DNA of 5,807 nt, from NCBI GenBank assembly GCA_001412365.1, contig LKUE01000022.1, positions 1 through 5,807 on the forward strand. Reading direction: 5' to 3'. Positions 1 through 5,807 of the stretch are shown here, in pieces (position 1 is the first letter of the stretch; each line of letters opens with the position of its first letter). The position numbers and the translations under genes were made by a program. Origin of the DNA: Desulfuromonas sp. SDB (lineage in GTDB: Bacteria > SDB-A). The notes beneath the pieces were generated by a model that was not told the origin of the DNA, did not search any database, and was given only the letters and a program-made list of their open reading frames with translations.

Positions 1-41
1 AACAATGAGCAATTAACAATGAACAATTATCAATAATCAAT
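1..41. repeat. AT-rich intergenic repeat, imperfect 14-bp tandem units
   Basis: Positions 1-14 and 15-28 are two copies of a 14-bp unit (AACAATGARCAATT, one mismatch), followed by ATCAATAATCAAT. Positions 23-41 recur with one mismatch at 3002-3020. In both places a C-rich stretch follows, and a palindromic ACCTGCC element begins 34-37 bases further on. This suggests a composite intergenic repeat rather than random AT-rich DNA. It may extend left of the window. Confidence 0.55.
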
Positions 42-70
42 GCCCCCAACACCAAAGTGATTAGACACAA

Positions 71-99
71 ATTTACCTGCCGAAAGTGGCAGGTGAACA
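71..99 (+). repeat. Palindromic intergenic repeat, copy 1
   Basis: ACCTGCC (75-81) pairs with GGCAGGT (88-94) around a GAAAGT loop. Pairing extends outward to 72-97 with one T-G wobble, giving a roughly 10-bp stem. All 29 bases are identical to 938-966. The asymmetric loop sets the orientation as +. It lies upstream of higBA and has no T-run, so it is not a typical intrinsic terminator. Confidence 0.75.
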
Positions 100-181
100 C
101 TGAAAAACACAGACAGATAGGATAAAATACTTCCACCACTTTATAAAAATAGAGAAAGGATTATAATTTCAAAAGCTATTG

Positions 182-217
182 CTATTGCTTGACAATAGTA
201 TCGTCATGCGATAGGAT
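182..217 (+). promoter_or_regulatory. higBA promoter with two inverted-repeat operators
   Basis: A -35 box TTGACA (189-194) and a -10 box TAGGAT (212-217) are separated by 17 bp. Two inverted repeats overlap them: CTATTG-N5-CAATAG (182-198) spans the -35, and TATCG-N5-CGATA (199-213) fills the spacer and enters the -10. Their centres are about 16 bp apart. In higBA systems HigA, or HigBA, represses its own promoter by binding such palindromes; that these two are the HigA sites is inferred from position. The expected transcription start coincides with the higB GTG at 223. Confidence 0.7.
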
Positions 218-222
218 ATGGA

Positions 223-504
223 GTGATTAAATCTTTCAAATGCAAGGAAACTGAGAAGATTTGGTTTGGTAAAGTATCAAAAAAATTACCTCTGGAGATT
301 CAAAATATTGCCAGAAGGAAACTGCGTATGATGAATAATGCCCAAAATATTACCGAATTAAAAATACCTCCTAATAATAAACTTGAAGCATTGAAGGGTA
401 CAAGAAAAGGACAGTTTAGCATAAGAATTAATAGGCAGTGGAGGATTTGTTTTATGTGGGTAAATGGCAATTGTTTTGATACTGAAATAATTGATTATCA
501 TTAA
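223..504 (+). CDS. higB: HigB-family toxin (RelE superfamily mRNA interferase)
   Basis: The 93-residue product is a full-length HigB toxin (plasmid maintenance killer protein family). These are small ribosome-dependent endoribonucleases that cleave mRNA during translation. The family signature is intact in the C-terminal half: LEALKGTRKGQFSIRIN (about 54-70), then QWRICFMW (72-79) and the terminal EIIDYH. The start is GTG at 223, chosen because MIKSF is the usual family N-terminus. It lacks a convincing Shine-Dalgarno and lies 6 nt after the -10 box, so the mRNA may be leaderless. It is first in a two-gene operon, toxin before antitoxin as is usual for higBA, with higA 11 bp downstream. Nothing suggests inactivation. 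The family call is secure; the activity is inferred. Confidence 0.93.
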   Translation: MIKSFKCKETEKIWFGKVSKKLPLEIQNIARRKLRMMNNAQNITELKIPPNNKLEALKGTRKGQFSIRINRQWRICFMWVNGNCFDTEIIDYH

Positions 505-515
505 GGAGATAAAAT

Positions 516-806
516 ATGGATAAGTTAAAAAATATTCATCCGGGAGAAATTTTAGAAGAGGAATTCCTTAAACCGATGAAAATAACTGCTTATAGATTAG
601 CAAAAGAAACAAATTTAAATCAGACCCGAATCTCCCAGATTATTCATGGGAAGAGAAAGATCACTGCGGATACTGCTTTGCGGTTGGCAAAATTCTTTGG
701 TACATCTGCGCAATTTTGGTTAGGTCTTCAGGATGATTACGATCTGGAGGAAGAAAGAAATAAAATTAAAACAGAACTGGAAAAAATACAGACAATAACT
801 GCTTAG
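516..806 (+). CDS. higA: HigA-family XRE antitoxin
   Basis: The 96-residue HTH protein neutralises HigB and represses the operon. The XRE-type helix-turn-helix spans about residues 22-66, with the recognition-helix region around NQTRISQIIHGKRKIT. It is followed by the HigA hallmark FGTSAQFWLGLQDDYDL (about 61-77), and the tail is a charged helix. The strong Shine-Dalgarno AGGAG (504-508) overlaps the end of the higB stop codon and sits 7 nt before the ATG, so translation should be efficient and coupled to higB. Likely DNA targets are the palindromes at 182-213. The length is normal and the gene looks functional. No clear terminator follows. Confidence 0.94.
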   Translation: MDKLKNIHPGEILEEEFLKPMKITAYRLAKETNLNQTRISQIIHGKRKITADTALRLAKFFGTSAQFWLGLQDDYDLEEERNKIKTELEKIQTITA

Positions 807-829
807 ATATTTACCTTAGGATTTTTGAT

Positions 830-937
830 CCCTAATGAATAATCCCCCATCCCAATTTTTAACCACAATGAACACAGAGAATTAAGGTATGCTGCTTCGC
901 AGATATCACCCTACAACCCTTAAATAATTAACCACAG
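830..937. repeat. Degenerate intergenic repeat leader (C-rich and CACAG-type motifs)
   Basis: Downstream of higA lies TAATGAATAAT followed by the C-rich run TCCCCCATCCC (about 833-853), resembling the AT-rich then C-rich leaders at 1-50 and 3002-3036. Next come ACCACAATGAACACAGAG and a small CTGC-TTC-GCAG hairpin (about 891-901), then ACCACAG leading into the palindrome at 938. No ORF or RNA gene is recognisable. It looks like a decayed composite intergenic repeat. Confidence 0.4.
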
Positions 938-984
938 ATTTACCTGCCGAAAGTGGCAGGTGAACAGGATAAGAATAATAATTG
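938..984 (+). repeat. Palindromic intergenic repeat, copy 2, with tail
   Basis: Positions 938-966 match 71-99 exactly, with the stem ACCTGCC (942-948)/GGCAGGT (955-961) and loop GAAAGT. A tail, AGGATAAGAATAATAATTG, follows (966-984); its last 13 bases recur at 3761-3773. The element lies between the converging 3' ends of higA and the DUF2283 gene. A T-run after the stem is absent on both strands, so an intrinsic terminator role is not supported. Confidence 0.75.
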
Positions 985-1001
985 ATTATTGGATAAATGA
1001 A

Positions 1002-1208
1002 TCAAACAGGTTGACTAGACATTTCCTGGTAAGAGAATTCCCAAAGATTCGAATTTGCTTTAGCATGTTCTATTGTCATGCTGACAATATTTCCTTTGGA
1101 ATCAATATCTATATAGATATTTTCACTAATTTCCTTTGTTTCATATACTTCTCTGTCGGTAAACTCAATATGAGATGTATCGGTATCAGAAAAGTATTTA
1201 ACTTTCAT
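1002..1208 (-). CDS. DUF2283 protein, putative antitoxin
   Basis: The 68-residue protein matches the DUF2283 family: it begins MKVKYFSDTDTSHIEF and carries the core pattern YIDIDSKGNIVSMTIEHA (about 32-49), with TKEISENI just before it. DUF2283 proteins are small and lack an enzymatic motif. They are often encoded directly after DUF4258 genes, as here, and the pair is regarded as a predicted TA module with DUF2283 as the antitoxin; that role is inferred from context. The start at 1208 lies 2 bp beyond the stop of the upstream gene. Its very strong Shine-Dalgarno, AAGGAGGG, sits inside the last codons of that gene, so translation is probably coupled and abundant. The gene appears complete. Confidence 0.85.
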   Translation of the reverse strand: MKVKYFSDTDTSHIEFTDREVYETKEISENIYIDIDSKGNIVSMTIEHAKANSNLWEFSYQEMSSQPV

Positions 1209-1210
1209 TT

Positions 1211-1447
1211 TTATCCCTCCTTGAAGGATCTATCAAAAAATGCATTATGTACAGTTTCCCCATCTTCAAGTATTATAACTCTTAAATATTTAAAAGTCTC
1301 CTCTATTTTAGCCCATTTCCTAATACGTCCGTCTGATTGAATTTCAATTTTTTCTGGATTTTCCATAACATATATTATCCATTCTTCTTTTATTTTCAAA
1401 CGGTCAGATCTGTTTCTAGTATAATCAAAATATTTTGTTGTTTTCAT
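1211..1447 (-). CDS. DUF4258-type protein, putative toxin of the DUF4258-DUF2283 pair
   Basis: The 78-residue protein resembles the DUF4258 group found beside DUF2283 genes: it opens with KYFDYTRNRSDR, has EEWIIYVMENPEKIEIQSDG (21-40) and RKWAKIEE, and ends with YLRVIILEDGETVHNAFFDR (54-73). The family is thought to share the compact RelE-like fold, so this is the presumed toxin. No catalytic residues can be assigned by eye and the biochemical role is unproven. No Shine-Dalgarno is visible before the ATG at 1447. An AT-rich -10-like TAAAAT lies 9 nt upstream and a 10-bp inverted repeat touches the start codon, so initiation is probably weak and repressible. It is the first gene of a two-gene operon. 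Confidence 0.82.
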   Translation of the reverse strand: MKTTKYFDYTRNRSDRLKIKEEWIIYVMENPEKIEIQSDGRIRKWAKIEETFKYLRVIILEDGETVHNAFFDRSFKEG

Positions 1448-1480
1448 TTTGAAATATTTTATATTCTTTTATTTCAAAAT
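1446..1480 (-). promoter_or_regulatory. Inverted repeat over the DUF4258 start, probable operator
   Basis: ATTTTGAAAT (1446-1455) and ATTTCAAAAT (1471-1480) are perfect 10-bp inverted arms separated by 15 bp. The proximal arm overlaps the first two bases of the start codon. On the minus strand a -10-like TAAAAT (1461-1456) lies between the arms. A -35 box is not convincing: TTGACT at 1510-1505 is too far away. Bound protein would block the start region, so an autoregulatory operator is the likeliest reading. Confidence 0.5.
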
Positions 1481-1629
1481 AAGAGTAATTTTATATCTTA
1501 CTCAAGTCAAGATAAGTGGTAAATTATCATTCAAACCACCCAACAAAAAGATAAATAGTATTTCTTTTGGATGATTTATTCAATATAGTAGCAGGTTTTC
1601 CTTACTTCAGTGAGAGGAGAAGCTTTGAC

Positions 1630-1681
1630 TTTCCATATAAACTTCAAGATTGTATAATAAAAAGATTGATTATTAATCTTG
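1630..1681 (+). promoter_or_regulatory. hicB promoter and repeated AAGATT half-sites
   Basis: A consensus -10 TATAAT (1653-1658) has TTTCCA (1630-1635) 17 bp upstream as a plausible -35. The sequence CAAGATT (1645-1651) is repeated as AAGATT (1662-1667) and inverted as AATCTTG (1675-1681). The inner pair is AAGATT-N7-AATCTT; the outer pair is CAAGATT-N23-AATCTTG. These flank the -10 and start region, as expected for a TA operator. Which protein binds is unknown: this HicB has no visible separate HTH domain. Confidence 0.5.
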
Positions 1682-1706
1682 AGTAAAATAAATATTTGGG
1701 CAAAAT

Positions 1707-1919
1707 ATGAATAGAGAATATACTGCAGTAATAAAAGAAATTGATGATTGGTGGGTTGGCTGGATTGAAGAAGTTCCCGGAGTGAATTGTCAGGAAAAGA
1801 CCTATGAAGAATTAAAAGAAACTCTGGAAATTACTCTAAAAGAAGCCTTGGAATTTAACCGACAGGATGCCCTTACCTCTGCTGTCAGTGGATATAAAGA
1901 AGAAAAAATTGCACTATGA
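1707..1919 (+). CDS. hicB: HicB-family antitoxin
   Basis: The 70-residue protein is a short HicB antitoxin with the partial RNase H-like fold that binds and blocks HicA. The hallmark stretch is intact: an N-terminal strand MNREYTAVIKEIDDWWVGWIE, the EVPGVNCQ turn (about 22-29), and the helix TYEELKETLEITLKEALEFN (33-52). It has no added HTH domain. The ATG at 1707 has only a weak GG-containing ribosome site (TTGGG, 1696-1700). The stop overlaps the hicA start as ATGA, so the two were translationally coupled. The partner hicA carries a premature stop, leaving this as an apparently intact antitoxin without a functional cognate toxin. Confidence 0.9.
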   Translation: MNREYTAVIKEIDDWWVGWIEEVPGVNCQEKTYEELKETLEITLKEALEFNRQDALTSAVSGYKEEKIAL

Positions 1920-2104
1920 AGCGGAAAAAGCTTCTACAGTATCTTCGTAATCAAGAATGTTACCTGTTAAGATAAGGTAGTAAACATTCTTGGTGGTATA
2001 ATCCCATTCAAAATAAAATATCATCTATTCCAAGACATTCAGAAAAAAAAGATATTTTAGCTAATAAGATCTGTAAAGACCTCGATCTTGAACCAGTTAA
2101 ATAA
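1916..2104 (+). pseudogene. hicA: hicA toxin inactivated by one in-frame stop codon
   Basis: Reading from the ATG at 1916, which overlaps the hicB stop, one unbroken frame gives 62 codons of a typical short HicA except that codon 20 (1973-1975) is TAA. Before it the frame reads MKRKKLLQYLRNQECYLLR, the normal HicA N-terminus. After it come GSKHSWWYNP, IPRH and KDILANKICKDLDLEP, the rest of the family pattern. HicA proteins normally have Glu between the Arg and GSKHS, so a single GAA-to-TAA change explains the break. The catalytic His (codon 24) lies beyond the stop, and no ATG, GTG or TTG codon allows a restart. The product would be a 19-residue peptide without RNase activity. A sequencing error or stop readthrough cannot be excluded from sequence alone. 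Confidence 0.88.
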
Positions 2105-2126
2105 AAATAACTTTATCCTGACTTAA

Positions 2127-2327
2127 TTAGGAATAACTTAGAAAGTTTTTGAAGTATTTTTTATGCTCTTCAGGGGAAAAACCAATACCAAAACAATGAT
2201 GTATCTGCCATCTATTATTGACATTTTTTAACAATATACTTTCAACATGTTCATCAATTTTCTTCTGTTTATCCCCATCATAAATAGGAATCCATAACAG
2301 AACTTCAGATTCATCAGAAGAAAACAT
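2127..2327 (-). CDS. Unrecognised short ORF, possibly a gene fragment
   Basis: This 66-codon frame reads MFSSDESEVLLWIPIYDG, then a Lys/Asp-rich helix and QIHHCFGIGFSPEEHKKYF. It resembles genuine protein in composition (mixed hydrophobic and charged residues, Trp, paired His), but I recognise no family. The ATG at 2327 has no Shine-Dalgarno. The frame stays open for only seven more codons upstream before a TAA, and the palindromic repeat copy at 2357-2383 begins 30 bp beyond the ATG. It may be the C-terminal remnant of a longer gene cut off at the repeat, or a small orphan gene. It converges on the hicA pseudogene with a 22-bp gap. No partner gene is adjacent. Confidence 0.4.
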   Translation of the reverse strand: MFSSDESEVLLWIPIYDGDKQKKIDEHVESILLKNVNNRWQIHHCFGIGFSPEEHKKYFKNFLSYS

Positions 2328-2356
2328 ACCGGTACTAGCATTAATTAGTTAAAATT

Positions 2357-2391
2357 GAATTCACCCGCCAAGTGTCTGGTTAACAAGATAC
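2357..2391 (+). repeat. Palindromic intergenic repeat, degenerate copy 3
   Basis: GAATTCACCCGCCAAGTG and the bases after it (2357-2383) match 3051-3077 at 23 of 27 positions. The right arm has decayed (GTCTGGT in place of GGCAGGT), so the stem is largely lost. AACAAGATA follows, matching the AACAGGATA tail of copy 2. The AAGT loop gives + orientation. It lies between the unrecognised minus-strand ORF and the parD-relE operon. Confidence 0.6.
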
Positions 2392-2417
2392 TAAAATACA
2401 AAATAATTAAATATATG

Positions 2418-2446
2418 TTGCATAATACAATTTATTGTTGTATTAT
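2418..2446 (+). promoter_or_regulatory. Promoter and operator of the ParD-like/RelE operon
   Basis: TTGCAT (2418-2423) and TATTAT (2441-2446) form a -35/-10 pair with 17-bp spacing. A perfect 9-bp inverted repeat, ATAATACAA (2422-2430) and TTGTATTAT (2438-2446), is laid exactly over both boxes with a 7-bp spacer. This is the usual arrangement for repression by a dimeric antitoxin. AAGGAG (2458-2463) provides a strong ribosome site for the first gene. Confidence 0.65.
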
Positions 2447-2470
2447 TGAAACAAATAAAGGAGAAAAATA

Positions 2471-2689
2471 ATGGGAAATGCAGTAAGAATATCCGAGGAA
2501 TTACTGAATGAAGCAAAGCTGGTCAGCAAAATTGAAAAAAGATCCATTACCGGACAGATTGAATACTGGGCTAAAATCGGTAAAATTGCTGAAGAAAATC
2601 CTGATCTAACCTACAGCTTAATAAAAGAGATATTATTGGGGATAAGAGAATTGGATCAAGGATTAATGAGTGAATACCAGTTTGGCTAG
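2471..2689 (+). CDS. ParD-like antitoxin
   Basis: The 72-residue protein belongs to the ParD-like antitoxin group. Its N-terminus MGNAVRISEELLNEAKLVSKIEKRS forms the expected strand-helix unit, followed by ITGQIEYWAKIGKIAEENPDL (26-46), the diagnostic segment of this family (in relatives roughly R-S-x-x-x-Q-I-E-x-W-A-x-I-G). The C-terminal part would wrap the toxin. It should neutralise the downstream RelE/ParE-type toxin and repress the operon through the palindrome over its promoter. A strong Shine-Dalgarno (AAGGAG, 2458-2463) lies 7 nt before the ATG. The toxin gene begins 3 bp after the stop. The length is normal and the gene appears intact. Confidence 0.85.
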   Translation: MGNAVRISEELLNEAKLVSKIEKRSITGQIEYWAKIGKIAEENPDLTYSLIKEILLGIRELDQGLMSEYQFG

Positions 2690-2692
2690 AAT

Positions 2693-2971
2693 ATGAAAGT
2701 TTTTCAATCCAGGAAGTTTTCTCATAAAGTAAAAAAATTCAATAAATCTGAAAAATCAGAACTAGATAAAATCATAAAAAGAATTCTAAAAAATCACCAA
2801 CTAGGAGTGGAGAAAAAGGGTGATTTAAAAGGTATTTTTATTTATAAATTTAAGATTAAATCGGTAGAATACTTGCTTGCTTACCGGATCAAACAAGAGA
2901 ATCTTGAATTGATCATGATTGGAGTTCATGAGAATTACTATCGAGAATTAAAATCGTATATTAAAAACTAA
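2693..2971 (+). CDS. RelE/ParE-superfamily toxin
   Basis: The 92-residue basic protein has the RelE/ParE layout: an N-terminal helical hairpin (about 6-34, Lys-rich), a KKGDLKGIFIYKF strand pair (41-53), a YLLAYRI strand (60-66), and the C-terminal strand and helix IMIGVHENYYRELK (74-87). The G-x-HENYYR ending is typical of the subgroup paired with ParD-like antitoxins. Members either cleave mRNA at the ribosome or poison gyrase; which applies cannot be told from sequence. The start has no Shine-Dalgarno of its own and lies 3 bp after the antitoxin stop, so expression probably depends on re-initiation, keeping toxin below antitoxin. It appears complete. Confidence 0.85.
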   Translation: MKVFQSRKFSHKVKKFNKSEKSELDKIIKRILKNHQLGVEKKGDLKGIFIYKFKIKSVEYLLAYRIKQENLELIMIGVHENYYRELKSYIKN

Positions 2972-3001
2972 AACCATGACTTGAATTGACCCTATCATTT
3001 T

Positions 3002-3077
3002 ACAATTATCAATGATCAATAACCCACCCCACCCCAGAAAGGTTTACCAAGAATTCACCTGCCAAGTGGCAGGTAAA
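3002..3077 (+). repeat. Composite intergenic repeat: AT-rich leader, C-rich stretch and palindrome copy 4
   Basis: Positions 3002-3020 match 23-41 with one mismatch. A C-rich stretch (about 3022-3036) follows, then the perfect stem ACCTGCC (3057-3063)/GGCAGGT (3068-3074) with loop AAGT. The order and spacing of the parts match 23-97. The element sits between the converging ends of the relE-type gene and the hicB-XRE gene. Neither strand shows a T-run after the stem, so it is not a canonical terminator. Confidence 0.7.
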
Positions 3078-3086
3078 TAATTTCTC

Positions 3087-3515
3087 TTAGCAGAAAATTA
3101 AGTTGTAATTAAAATCAGTGAATACTTCTTTTATCTTGAATAAGGTTTTTAGGGTTGGATTAGAAGTTTTCGCCTTTTCCAGTTTCTGATAACTATAGAT
3201 ATTTTTCATACCCAATTTACTGGCTGCTTGTCTCTGGGTAATTTTATTTTCTATTCTGTACATCCTAAGAAGCATGGAGAAAGCGATATTTGGTCTTACT
3301 GATACTGCATAAACATTGTTTTTGTTTATTTTCTTTTCAGGTAGAGGAAATATGACTTTGGAATTATCGGGTTCTTCTAAATACAGATTTAAAACTTCTT
3401 CCATATTCTTTTTTAATTCACTTAAATTATCACCTTCGGTAAAACAACCGGGCATTTCAATACATTCAGCCCAATAACCATCTTTTTCTCGGTGAATTTT
3501 AAAATGATATTTCAT
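3087..3515 (-). CDS. hicB: HicB-family antitoxin with C-terminal XRE helix-turn-helix
   Basis: The 142-residue two-domain protein has a HicB fold at residues 1-60: KIHREKDGYWAECIEMPGCFTEGDNLSELKKNMEEVLNLYLEE covers the strand, the EMPGCFTEGD turn and the helix. After a linker, an XRE-type HTH spans about 76-135, with ITQRQAASKLGMKNIYSYQKLEK as its core. The first domain should bind a HicA toxin; the second should bind operator DNA. The ATG at 3515 has an AGAGG ribosome site 8 nt upstream. Only the C-terminal piece of hicA lies upstream, with a 2-bp gap, so the antitoxin and repressor has outlived its toxin. It may persist as an anti-addiction protein, a free regulator or a decaying remnant. 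The reading frame itself is intact. Confidence 0.9.
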   Translation of the reverse strand: MKYHFKIHREKDGYWAECIEMPGCFTEGDNLSELKKNMEEVLNLYLEEPDNSKVIFPLPEKKINKNNVYAVSVRPNIAFSMLLRMYRIENKITQRQAASKLGMKNIYSYQKLEKAKTSNPTLKTLFKIKEVFTDFNYNLIFC

Positions 3516-3517
3516 TT

Positions 3518-3625
3518 TTAATCCTCTTTTAATACTTTTCTCAAATGATACTCTAAACCCTTGCTCAACTCTTTGTGTAGAGGGATTGAAATTCGTTTAT
3601 TTCCTTTTCCCATAATCAATGGCAT
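3518..3625 (-). pseudogene. hicA: C-terminal remnant of a hicA toxin gene
   Basis: Directly upstream of hicB-XRE, in the usual hicAB order, an open stretch of 35 codons (ATG at 3625, stop ending at 3518) contains GKGNKRISIPLHKELSKGL followed by a basic helix ending KVLKED. This matches the C-terminal half of HicA, where the (V/I)PxH strand leads into a K-G-x-L-x-x-x-L-x-K helix. The N-terminal half, with the GSHH-type catalytic histidine, is absent. A TAA lies two codons upstream of the ATG, and the DNA beyond that is repeat-like and gives no HicA sequence in any frame I read. The gene was therefore truncated by deletion or by a repeat-associated event, not by a point mutation. An internal ATG at 3613 also exists; neither start would yield an active toxin. 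Confidence 0.75.
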
Positions 3626-3677
3626 TAATTATTCTATTTTCTAATACCAATTATAATTAGTATTTTCAATAAATAAT

Positions 3678-3773
3678 TTAACCTCAGATAAACACGGGTG
3701 AACACAGATAGAAATTTAATGATTACTGTTTGAAAACAGTCTTTTTCCTTGCTAAAAAGAAGAATAATAATTG
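3678..3773 (+). repeat. Degenerate CACAGAT-type intergenic repeat with shared tail
   Basis: TTAACCTCAGATAAACACGGGTGAACACAGATAGAAAT (two halves, about 3678-3715) is related to the ACCACAG and GGTGAACA flanks of the other copies but lacks the ACCTGCC palindrome. After a small hairpin (3725-3740), AGAATAATAATTG (3761-3773) is identical to the tail of copy 2 (972-984). Together with 3626-3677 it makes up the spacer between the hicA remnant and the DUF4160 gene. No ORF is recognisable here. Confidence 0.45.
3725..3746 (+). terminator. Short hairpin with T-run, terminator-like
   Basis: ACTGTT (3725-3730), loop TGAA and AACAGT (3735-3740) form a 6-bp stem followed by CTTTTT (3741-3746). The shape is that of a weak intrinsic terminator reading rightward. 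No plus-strand gene ends nearby, the last being at 2971, so it would insulate the DUF4160 operon from read-through. Alternatively the palindrome is an operator, as it lies about 30 bp upstream of the predicted -35. Confidence 0.35.
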
Positions 3774-3799
3774 CTTACAAAATTGAATTATCTTAGAAT
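3771..3799 (+). promoter_or_regulatory. Promoter of the DUF4160-DUF2442 operon
   Basis: TTGCTT (3771-3776) and TAGAAT (3794-3799) are spaced by 17 bp; the -10 matches 5 of 6 consensus bases and the -35 is weak. Transcription would start about 7 nt after the -10, at the GTG start codon at 3806, which suggests a leaderless mRNA as at higB. Confidence 0.5.
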
Positions 3800-3805
3800 A
3801 TATCT

Positions 3806-4045
3806 GTGAGTACTACTGTTTTTAAAATTGGTAGTTATAGGTTCTTTTTCTTCTCAAGAGAAGAAGTGAGAAAACATATTCATGTTTATCATCCGGATGG
3901 AGAAGCAAAGTTCTGGTTGGAACCAGATATTGAATTAGCAAGAAATTATAAGTTAACTGAAAAACAATTAAATGAGATAAAGAAAATTATTGAGGAAAAC
4001 CTAGATGAAATCAAAAATTCATGGAAAGAACATTTCGGAAATTGA
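3806..4045 (+). CDS. DUF4160 protein, member of a putative TA pair
   Basis: The 79-residue protein is a clear DUF4160 member: TVFKIGSYRFFFFSREE at the N-terminus, the KHIHVYHPDGEAKFWLEPDIELA core (23-45) with the conserved HxHV and AKFWL(E/D)P motifs, and a C-terminal helix LNEIKKIIEENLDEIKNSWKEHF. The biochemical function is unknown. These genes recur next to DUF2442 genes, as here, and such pairs have been proposed as TA-like modules; which partner is toxic is not established. The GTG at 3806 places the usual family N-terminus correctly and has no Shine-Dalgarno, so the message may be leaderless. The 3' end overlaps the next gene by 41 bp. Confidence 0.85.
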   Translation: MSTTVFKIGSYRFFFFSREEVRKHIHVYHPDGEAKFWLEPDIELARNYKLTEKQLNEIKKIIEENLDEIKNSWKEHFGN

Positions 4046-4265
4046 AGTTTTAAACATAGATAAACACGGATTTTGGCTATTTTTAAAAGGTAGAGAATAT
4101 TTTTTACCTTATTCTGATTTCCCCTGGTTTTTAGAAGCAAGAATTAAAGATATTAATAAAGTTGAATTACTCCATGAATCTCATATCTATTGGCCTAATT
4201 TAGATATTGATCTGGATGTTAAAATTCTTGAAAATCTAGAAAATTATCCTTTAACTTATAAATAA
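4005..4265 (+). CDS. DUF2442 protein, partner of DUF4160
   Basis: The 86-residue protein carries the DUF2442 pattern: EVLNIDKHGFWLFLKGREYFLPYSDFPWF (14-42), ARIKDINKVELLHESHIYWPNLDIDLDV (45-72) and the ending NYPLTYK. Family members are small mixed alpha/beta proteins, and many occur as the second gene after DUF4160. It starts inside the DUF4160 gene at 4005 in another frame. A GAGGA ribosome site (3992-3996) lies 8 nt upstream, much better than that of the first gene, so this product is probably made in excess. That would suit an antitoxin-like role, but this is inference. The gene is complete. It is followed by a degenerate palindromic repeat rather than a recognisable terminator. Confidence 0.87.
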   Translation: MKSKIHGKNISEIEVLNIDKHGFWLFLKGREYFLPYSDFPWFLEARIKDINKVELLHESHIYWPNLDIDLDVKILENLENYPLTYK

Positions 4266-4285
4266 ACTTTCATTTTCTTCCCTTA

Positions 4286-4322
4286 ATTTACCTGGTGCAA
4301 ATAGCAGGTGAATAGGATAAGA
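4286..4322 (+). repeat. Palindromic intergenic repeat, degenerate copy 5, with tail
   Basis: ATTTACCTG (4286-4294) and GCAGGTGAA (4304-4312) keep the outer arms of the palindrome around a longer, altered centre. TAGGATAAGAAA follows, matching the tail of copy 2. Orientation is + by the tail. It separates the DUF2442 gene from vapBC. Confidence 0.6.
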
Positions 4323-4355
4323 AATACTGATATGAAACAACTAATATAATTTTCT

Positions 4356-4413
4356 TTGAACTATCTTAAAAAAGTGTTATCATAATGTATAAAGTGATAA
4401 CATTTAATCGGAG
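4356..4413 (+). promoter_or_regulatory. vapBC operator and probable promoter
   Basis: TGTTATCA (4375-4382) and TGATAACA (4395-4402) are perfect 8-bp inverted arms with 12 bp between them, so the arms lie on about the same face of the helix. This is a typical operator for a VapB ribbon-helix-helix dimer or VapBC complex. CATAAT (4381-4386) or TATAAA (4388-4393) could be the -10, with TTGAAC (4356-4361) as a -35; spacing is not ideal for either. GGAG (4410-4413) is the vapB ribosome site, 7 nt from the ATG. Confidence 0.6.
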
Positions 4414-4420
4414 TTAATAT

Positions 4421-4669
4421 ATGATTAGAACTCAAATACAATTAACTGAAAAGCAAGCAGAAGCTTTGAAAAAATTGTCTTCTGAAAAAGATGTATCCAT
4501 TTCTGAATTAATCAGAAGAGGTGTGGATTTGTTATTAAAAACGGACTTAATTTCCAATAATGAATTGAAAAAGAAAAATGCGTTGAAATTATCTGGTTTA
4601 CATAAAACCGGTTGTAAAAATCTTTCTACTCATCATGATTATTACATTTATGAGGATAATAACAAATGA
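4421..4669 (+). CDS. vapB: VapB-type ribbon-helix-helix antitoxin
   Basis: The 82-residue antitoxin has a CopG/Arc-type ribbon-helix-helix at residues 1-41: the IRTQIQLTEKQ strand, helix AEALKKLSSEK, then VSISELIRRGVDLLL. The dimer binds DNA with the N-terminal ribbon, presumably at the palindrome 4375-4402. The C-terminal tail, with SGLHKTG and the aromatic DYYIYED, should occupy the active-site groove of the toxin. Translation starts at 4421 behind a GGAG ribosome site. The stop overlaps the vapC start as ATGA, so the two genes are translationally coupled. It looks intact. The VapB name is given because the partner is a PIN-domain protein; RHH antitoxins also pair with other toxins. Confidence 0.9.
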   Translation: MIRTQIQLTEKQAEALKKLSSEKDVSISELIRRGVDLLLKTDLISNNELKKKNALKLSGLHKTGCKNLSTHHDYYIYEDNNK

Positions 4670-5070
4670 GTGTATTTGTGGATACATCAGGAATTCTCGC
4701 TTTGATTAATGCTGACGATATTAATCACAAACAGGCAGATGAAATCTGGAAAAATCTGATTGAAAAAGAGGAGGAATTGATTTCCACTAACTATGTTCTC
4801 TTAGAAACTATAGCAGTAATCCAAAACAGAATTGGATTAACAGCAGTTAATTCTTTATATAAATATTTGATCCCCATACTGAAAATTATGTGGGTAGATG
4901 TTTCTGTTCATAATCGAGCAATGACAAATTTACTAATCATGAATAAGAAAAAGATAAGTTTAGTTGATTGTGTCAGCTTTGAAATCATGAATTTATCCGG
5001 CATTACTGAAGTATTCTGCTTTGACAAACATTTTCAGGAACAAGGATATACTTTCATCGAGATGAATTGA
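4666..5070 (+). CDS. vapC: PIN-domain VapC toxin ribonuclease
   Basis: The 134-residue PIN-domain protein has all four acidic residues expected at the metal site: Asp6 in VFVDTSGILAL, Glu47 in STNYVLLETIAV, Asp101 in ISLVDCVSFEIM and Asp120 in VFCFDKHFQEQGY. VapC toxins are Mg2+/Mn2+-dependent RNases that cut initiator tRNA, other tRNAs or rRNA to stop translation; the target cannot be predicted here. The length fits the family. The ATG overlaps the vapB stop by 4 nt and there is no independent ribosome site, which favours antitoxin over toxin. The module is complete and appears functional. The gene converges on hipA with a 255-bp gap containing decayed repeats. Confidence 0.93.
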   Translation: MSVFVDTSGILALINADDINHKQADEIWKNLIEKEEELISTNYVLLETIAVIQNRIGLTAVNSLYKYLIPILKIMWVDVSVHNRAMTNLLIMNKKKISLVDCVSFEIMNLSGITEVFCFDKHFQEQGYTFIEMN

Positions 5071-5112
5071 TAATTAAAAGAGAAAATAATATACCTTCCC
5101 CTTTCTGATGAC

Positions 5113-5237
5113 GAATCACAGGTAAACACTATTCACAGATTACACCCCCCACCACCGATGGGATTGGAACACAGATGGACAGGATTTCAATTGATCAATC
5201 TACCGAGCATCAGGGAAACAAGATAAGAATTATGATG
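5113..5237 (+). repeat. Decayed intergenic repeats between vapC and hipA
   Basis: Several family motifs occur in degenerate form: CACAGGTAAACACT, CACAGATTAC followed by a C-rich run (about 5145-5155), AACACAGATGGACAGGAT (about 5169-5186), an ATTGATCAAT segment, and AAACAAGATAAGAATTATGAT (about 5217-5237), which resembles the tails of copies 2 and 3. No palindrome of the ACCTGCC type is intact and no ORF is recognisable. Confidence 0.4.
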
Positions 5238-5307
5238 ATAAAAGCTTTTTTAAAATCTTCTATTAGATTTATATATAAACTCAGATAATAGCAATAATCT
5301 AACTTTT

Positions 5308-5333
5308 AAAAATATGACTTGAGTATTAAGTCA
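5308..5333 (-). terminator. Possible intrinsic terminator of hipA
   Basis: On the minus strand TGACTT (5333-5328), a 7-nt loop and AAGTCA (5320-5315) form a 6-bp stem, followed by TA and five T (5312-5308). The hipA stop codon (5328-5326) falls within it. The stem is AT-rich and weak, so termination would be partial. Confidence 0.4.
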
Positions 5334-5807
5334 ATCTGGAATACTTTTCATTAACTATTTCTTTAAATCTTTCTTTTTCCTGCCGGTCAAGATAGGAATT
5401 ATCAATTATCTTTTGAATTTCAGCTTTCTTATCAATAAATAAGTTAATAGCTTTTTCGGGGATTTTCAGATATTTAGCAAATTTAATAAAATCCGGCTTT
5501 TGGATATTATTCTTTTTCCCATTTAAAGTAAGAGCAGTATCCTCTTCTTCCGGGATCAATATTTTTGAAGATACAATATCATAACCGGGTGAAAGTCTTA
5601 TTTCATTGTGGTTATTATATATTATGGAAAAATTTTTCTGATGAGCATCTCCATTCCCTAATATGAAATTTAATACGATTCTCTCAAAAAATAACTGGAC
5701 ATCTAAACCGGGTACTTCAGATATTGACCATAATTTTTTCCCGATTTCTTCATATGATCCACTGTATTTATCTTTCTTATTTAAAATCTGAAAAAAAGTT
5801 TCCGTAT
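5326..5807 (-). CDS. hipA: HipA-family serine/threonine kinase toxin, C-terminal part
   Basis: The frame is open from the right edge to the TAA at 5326 and gives 159 residues of the C-terminal kinase lobe; the rest lies outside the window. Key elements are KYSGSYEEIGKKL (13-25), the catalytic loop FILGNGDAHQKNFS (47-60), with Asp53 and Asn58 in the positions of E. coli HipA Asp309 and its following Asn, and the metal-binding segment LSPGYDIVSSK (71-81), with Asp76 equivalent to Asp332. TALTLNGKKNN and a helical tail follow. HipA kinases inactivate glutamyl-tRNA synthetase, or TrpS for HipT, by phosphorylation. Catalytic residues are intact in the visible part. An ATG at 5559 is internal. A HipB-type antitoxin gene would be expected upstream, beyond the edge. 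Confidence 0.92.
   Translation of the reverse strand, partial: TETFFQILNKKDKYSGSYEEIGKKLWSISEVPGLDVQLFFERIVLNFILGNGDAHQKNFSIIYNNHNEIRLSPGYDIVSSKILIPEEEDTALTLNGKKNNIQKPDFIKFAKYLKIPEKAINLFIDKKAEIQKIIDNSYLDRQEKERFKEIVNEKYSRLT

What the first reader, a model, noticed from the sequence alone, without database searches (positions are those of the whole stretch)
1973..1975. hicA killed by a single nonsense codon at residue 20
Seen: a continuous 62-codon hicA frame with TAA exactly where HicA proteins have Glu before the GSKHS catalytic segment; everything after it is still readable HicA with no frameshift. This suggests a recent event, one G-to-T change. The adjacent hicB is intact. Established: loss of the toxin first is the tolerated order, because losing the antitoxin first is lethal.
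Basis: partly seen in the sequence, partly recalled or inferred. Interest (0 to 1): 0.68.

Follow-up and report, generated by a model that had tools for sequence, protein, structure and literature searches.

The report
Dead HicA toxin beside intact HicB
A small bacterial toxin gene (hicA) has been switched off by one stop codon in its middle while its antitoxin gene (hicB) beside it is still whole; this is real, but it is the ordinary way toxin-antitoxin pairs decay and is seen in many other genomes.

Summary
A 62-codon hicA frame (1916-2104, +) is interrupted only by TAA at codon 20 (1973-1975). The catalytic His24 and the rest of the domain lie after the stop, with no in-frame ATG, GTG, TTG or CTG behind it. 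All 20 close relatives aligned carry Glu there. The partner hicB (1707-1919) is intact and overlaps hicA by ATGA. The pair is a small hicBA whose HicB has no DNA-binding domain (Gerdes' Class 2). It sits in a 5.8-kb contig of toxin-antitoxin cassettes.

It is ordinary. In 386 genomes (this one included), 9 of 70 related hicA places have an internal stop. In this genome three of four recognised hicA loci are dead.

"Recent" is allowed but not shown: no further stops or frameshifts, no detectable rate increase, no sister strain available. An assembly error cannot be excluded without reads. Most likely a pseudogenised toxin with an orphan antitoxin, either still decaying or kept as a shield against incoming toxins. 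Interest is low.

The parts
1707..1919 (+). hicB, intact, 70 aa, small HicB without a recognisable DNA-binding domain
   Evidence: open frame; weak Pfam UPF0150 match (E 9e-4, below cut-off); full-length match to the HicB profile of relatives, 1-70, 123 bits
1916..2104 (+). hicA pseudogene, 62-codon frame with one internal stop
   Evidence: translation; Pfam HicA_toxin; subfamily profile E 2.1e-31
1973..1975 (+). premature TAA at codon 20, in place of the Glu that is invariant in close relatives; four codons before catalytic His24
1916..1919 (+). ATGA overlap of hicB stop and hicA start (translational coupling inferred)
   Evidence: sequence
3518..3625 (-). second hicA remnant: 35 codons of the C-terminal half, lacking the N-terminal half and the catalytic His
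   Evidence: 53% identity over 32 aa to the HicA lying upstream of the nearest HicB homologue in G045 (L083)
3087..3515 (-). second hicB, intact, 142 aa, with C-terminal HTH (Gerdes Class 3 type)
   Evidence: Pfam HTH_3 above cut-off, HicB_lk_antitox E 5.6e-5 below cut-off; homologues in other genomes

Best explanation
This is a decayed type II hicBA toxin-antitoxin module of the small, reversed-order kind (Gerdes Class 2). A point mutation made a stop codon at the Glu codon before the G-x-x-His catalytic loop of HicA. Translation of hicA, probably coupled to hicB through the ATGA overlap, therefore yields a 19-residue peptide without the catalytic His and without most of the dsRBD-like fold. 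HicB is still encoded by an intact frame and has no toxin of its own left. It is an orphan antitoxin, either drifting or kept for a time because it can still neutralise incoming HicA of the same family. Shown: frame, stop, conservation, intact hicB, absence of a downstream start codon. Inferred: loss of toxicity, expression of hicB, and any retained role.
For: Frame and stop. Glu at this position in all 20 close relatives. His24 is essential in a studied HicA (PMC12297915) and here lies after the stop. No in-frame ATG, GTG, TTG or CTG after the stop. hicB full length. Internal stops are common in the family: 9 of 70 places in 386 genomes, this one included, plus L041, which has a different stop and an intact hicB, and L045, where hicA has lost its N-terminal part. 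In the same genome, C347 hicA has its own internal TAG and the second window hicA is truncated. Gene layout matches Class 2 hicBA (PMC10865869).
Against: No reads, so a base error in a fragmented assembly is not excluded. No sister strain shows the ancestral state directly. No expression or toxicity data.
Confidence: 0.87

Rival explanations
1. Assembly or sequencing error: the organism carries an intact hicA.
For: The window is a whole short contig of a fragmented assembly (433 contigs), and the rest of the frame is clean.
Against: The site is not in a homopolymer. Other hicA genes of the same genome are broken in other ways. The other complete genes of known families in the window read without breaks.
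Confidence: 0.07
2. Readthrough or ochre suppression gives some full-length HicA, so the toxin is only turned down.
For: The rest of the frame is preserved, and the hicA branch is not unusually long relative to hicB (ratio 1.47, eighth of 21).
Against: HigB (223-504) and the ParE-like gene (2693-2971) in the same window end in TAA at the natural end of their families, so TAA is a stop here. Readthrough of TAA is normally very low (general knowledge). Related hicA genes elsewhere have internal stops of all three kinds.
Confidence: 0.03
3. The pseudogene reading is right, and in addition HicB is kept by selection as an anti-addiction protein that protects against horizontally arriving HicA of this subfamily.
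For: hicB is conserved (1 departure from 30 near-invariant sites). The subfamily is scattered over distant phyla, which suggests transfer. Orphan antitoxins, some with confirmed inhibitory activity, and a possible anti-addiction role are discussed for Klebsiella (PMC7192599).
Against: A recently orphaned gene would look the same; hicB shows no constraint beyond that of its relatives. No relative of this hicB was found in the plasmid and phage collections.
Confidence: 0.25

Closest known systems
Class 2 hicBA modules (Gerdes 2024, PMC10865869)
   Same: hicB before hicA, overlapping genes, small HicB (70 aa) without a DNA-binding domain, HicA of 62 codons
   Different: the toxin gene is interrupted by a stop, so the module is not functional as a pair
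Solitary hicB genes and orphan antitoxins (PMC10865869; PMC7192599)
   Same: intact antitoxin without a functional toxin, in a cluster of TA loci
   Different: here the toxin remnant is still complete apart from one codon
Thiotrichaceae / Thiomargarita hicBA (L034, L035)
   Same: closest intact relatives, HicA 73% identical over 62 residues, same gene order
   Different: hicA uninterrupted; hicB and hicA do not overlap by ATGA there

Membership tests
HicA toxin (PF07927) | match to the family profile over the domain | tested here: met
   E 3.1e-6, 27.6 bits against a cut-off of 27 with X at the stop
HicA toxin (PF07927) | uninterrupted open frame including the catalytic His | tested here: not met
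   TAA at codon 20, His at codon 24; hence a pseudogene of the family, not a functional member
HicA toxin (PF07927) | RNase toxicity neutralised by HicB | not testable with these tools
   needs expression in a laboratory strain
Class 2 hicBA | hicB upstream of hicA, small HicB of 63-103 codons without DNA-binding domain | tested here: met
   70 aa HicB, no HTH or RHH match in Pfam; genes overlap by ATGA; class definition from PMC10865869
Class 3 hicAB (second pair in window) | hicA upstream of hicB with C-terminal HTH | tested here: inconclusive
   HicB with HTH_3 intact, but hicA is only a C-terminal remnant

The most novel reading that the evidence does not exclude
In this lineage HicA toxins are repeatedly inactivated while HicB antitoxins are retained under selection as a standing shield against incoming HicA modules, with two such orphan HicBs on one contig.
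Probability: 0.1. Interest if true: 0.35.

Novelty: new member of a known kind. Interest (0 to 1): 0.13.

Why it matters
It is a clean example of toxin loss with antitoxin retention, and two such cases lie on one contig. Alone it teaches little. Counted across many genomes, the ratio of broken toxins to broken antitoxins would test the expected order of decay of toxin-antitoxin pairs.

Tried and rejected
Restart after the stop giving a C-terminal HicA: rejected, no ATG, GTG, TTG or CTG in frame behind it. Relaxed selection as a clock: inconclusive; the window hicA departs at 4 of 33 near-invariant sites (G14E, R35I, I44K, G57D), but intact relatives depart at up to 6, and the hicA/hicB branch ratio is mid-range. 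A sister copy for the ancestral codon: none in the same genome or the three same-family genomes. Relatives of hicB on plasmids or phages, and of hicA in viral contigs: none. Contig from another organism: not favoured; the palindrome CACCTGCC-N-GGCAGGT of this contig also occurs on other contigs of the same assembly, 13 hits against 0 for the control, and its G+C of 30% lies at the low end of the unmasked contigs sampled, 29-40%.

Full report
Observation. The frame 1916-2104 (+) reads as 62 residues of HicA with one internal TAA at codon 20, coordinates 1973-1975. With X at the stop it passes the Pfam HicA_toxin cut-off (E 3.1e-6) and matches a profile of ten close relatives from first to last position (E 2.1e-31). 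The half behind the stop alone still scores 20.5 bits. No second internal stop and no frameshift is present.

Comparison with relatives. A scan of 84,980 species genomes gave 14 relatives, the best 73% identical, in Thiomargarita and Thiotrichaceae, and others in Desulfothermus, Planctomycetota, Atribacteria, a spirochaete and a cyanobacterium. All 13 that cover the position have Glu, encoded by GAA in 11 and GAG in 2. In the wider close set of 20 other sequences, Glu is invariant there. The catalytic His, which is essential in the gonococcal HicA (His24; PMC12297915), is codon 24 here and lies after the stop. No in-frame ATG, GTG, TTG or CTG follows the stop, so a C-terminal piece is not expected.

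The partner. hicB, 1707-1919, is intact and overlaps hicA by ATGA. It covers the whole HicB profile of its relatives. It has 70 residues and no HTH or RHH match. That is the layout of Class 2 hicBA, a class whose toxins and antitoxins had not been studied experimentally according to the 2024 survey (PMC10865869).

How unusual is it? I searched 386 genomes, this one included, with the subfamily profile and found 70 places. The tool flagged 11 with stops. On reading the sequences, two (L094, L096) are natural ends, leaving 9 internal stops, among them the window and C347 of the same genome. Among the named relatives, L041 has a different stop with an intact hicB, and L045 has lost the N-terminal part of hicA next to a shortened hicB. 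Among the distinct loci read, hicA alone carries an internal stop in 5 (the window included), hicB alone is broken in 1 (L036, an extra base in a run of eight A, possibly a sequencing error), and both are broken in 1 (L069). The direction fits the expectation that toxins are lost first, but 5 against 1 is too few to be significant.

Age. From codon composition, 38 of 549 single changes in the other 61 codons would make a further stop. Seeing none bounds divergence since inactivation to about 0.24 substitutions per site, or about 0.07 if indels occur at 0.15 per substitution, an assumed value. The window's hicA branch is 1.47 times its hicB branch, eighth of 21, so there is no sign of long relaxed evolution. 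'Recent' is therefore allowed, not shown.

A second case in the window. On the minus strand, 3518-3625 encodes MPLIMGKGNKRISIPLHKELSKGLEYHLRKVLKED, directly before the intact hicB-HTH gene at 3087-3515. Alone it is too short for a Pfam match. The nearest homologue of that HicB (G045, 51% identity) has a complete HicA in the same place, and the window peptide matches its C-terminal half at 53% over 32 residues. The other reading frames upstream show no N-terminal half. So both hicA genes in this contig are dead and both hicB genes are whole. A further hicA in the genome (C347) has an internal TAG; a fourth (C79) is intact.

Surroundings. The contig is an array of toxin-antitoxin and TA-like pairs: HigBA (223-806), DUF2283/DUF4258 (1002-1447, -), the hicBA pseudo-pair, ParD-like/ParE-like (2471-2971), the hicA remnant and hicB-HTH, DUF4160/DUF2442 (3806-4265), RHH/PIN (4421-5070) and a cut HipA_C gene (5326-5805, -). 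Clusters of this kind, with solitary hicB genes, are described (PMC10865869).

Conclusion. It is an everyday event in the life of toxin-antitoxin pairs. What would change this view is population data showing that the orphan hicB genes are kept by selection.

Noticed in passing
window 3518-3625 (-) and 3087-3515 (-): A second hicA reduced to its C-terminal half in front of an intact HTH-type hicB.
   Followed up: yes
window 75-95, 942-962, 3056-3074: Palindromic repeat CACCTGCC-N-GGCAGGT between cassettes; 13 oriented hits of the relaxed form in the genome, on other contigs too, against 0 for the reversed control. Possibly an interspersed repeat of intergenic regions.
   Followed up: partly
L036, about 3790-4001: In Desulfothermus okinawensis the hicB next to an intact hicA has an extra A in a run of eight A near its start: either a draft-genome error or an antitoxin-first break.
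   Followed up: partly
window 1-5807: The whole contig is an array of TA or TA-like pairs and remnants, with the DUF2283/DUF4258 and DUF4160/DUF2442 pairs placed like toxin-antitoxin pairs.
   Followed up: partly
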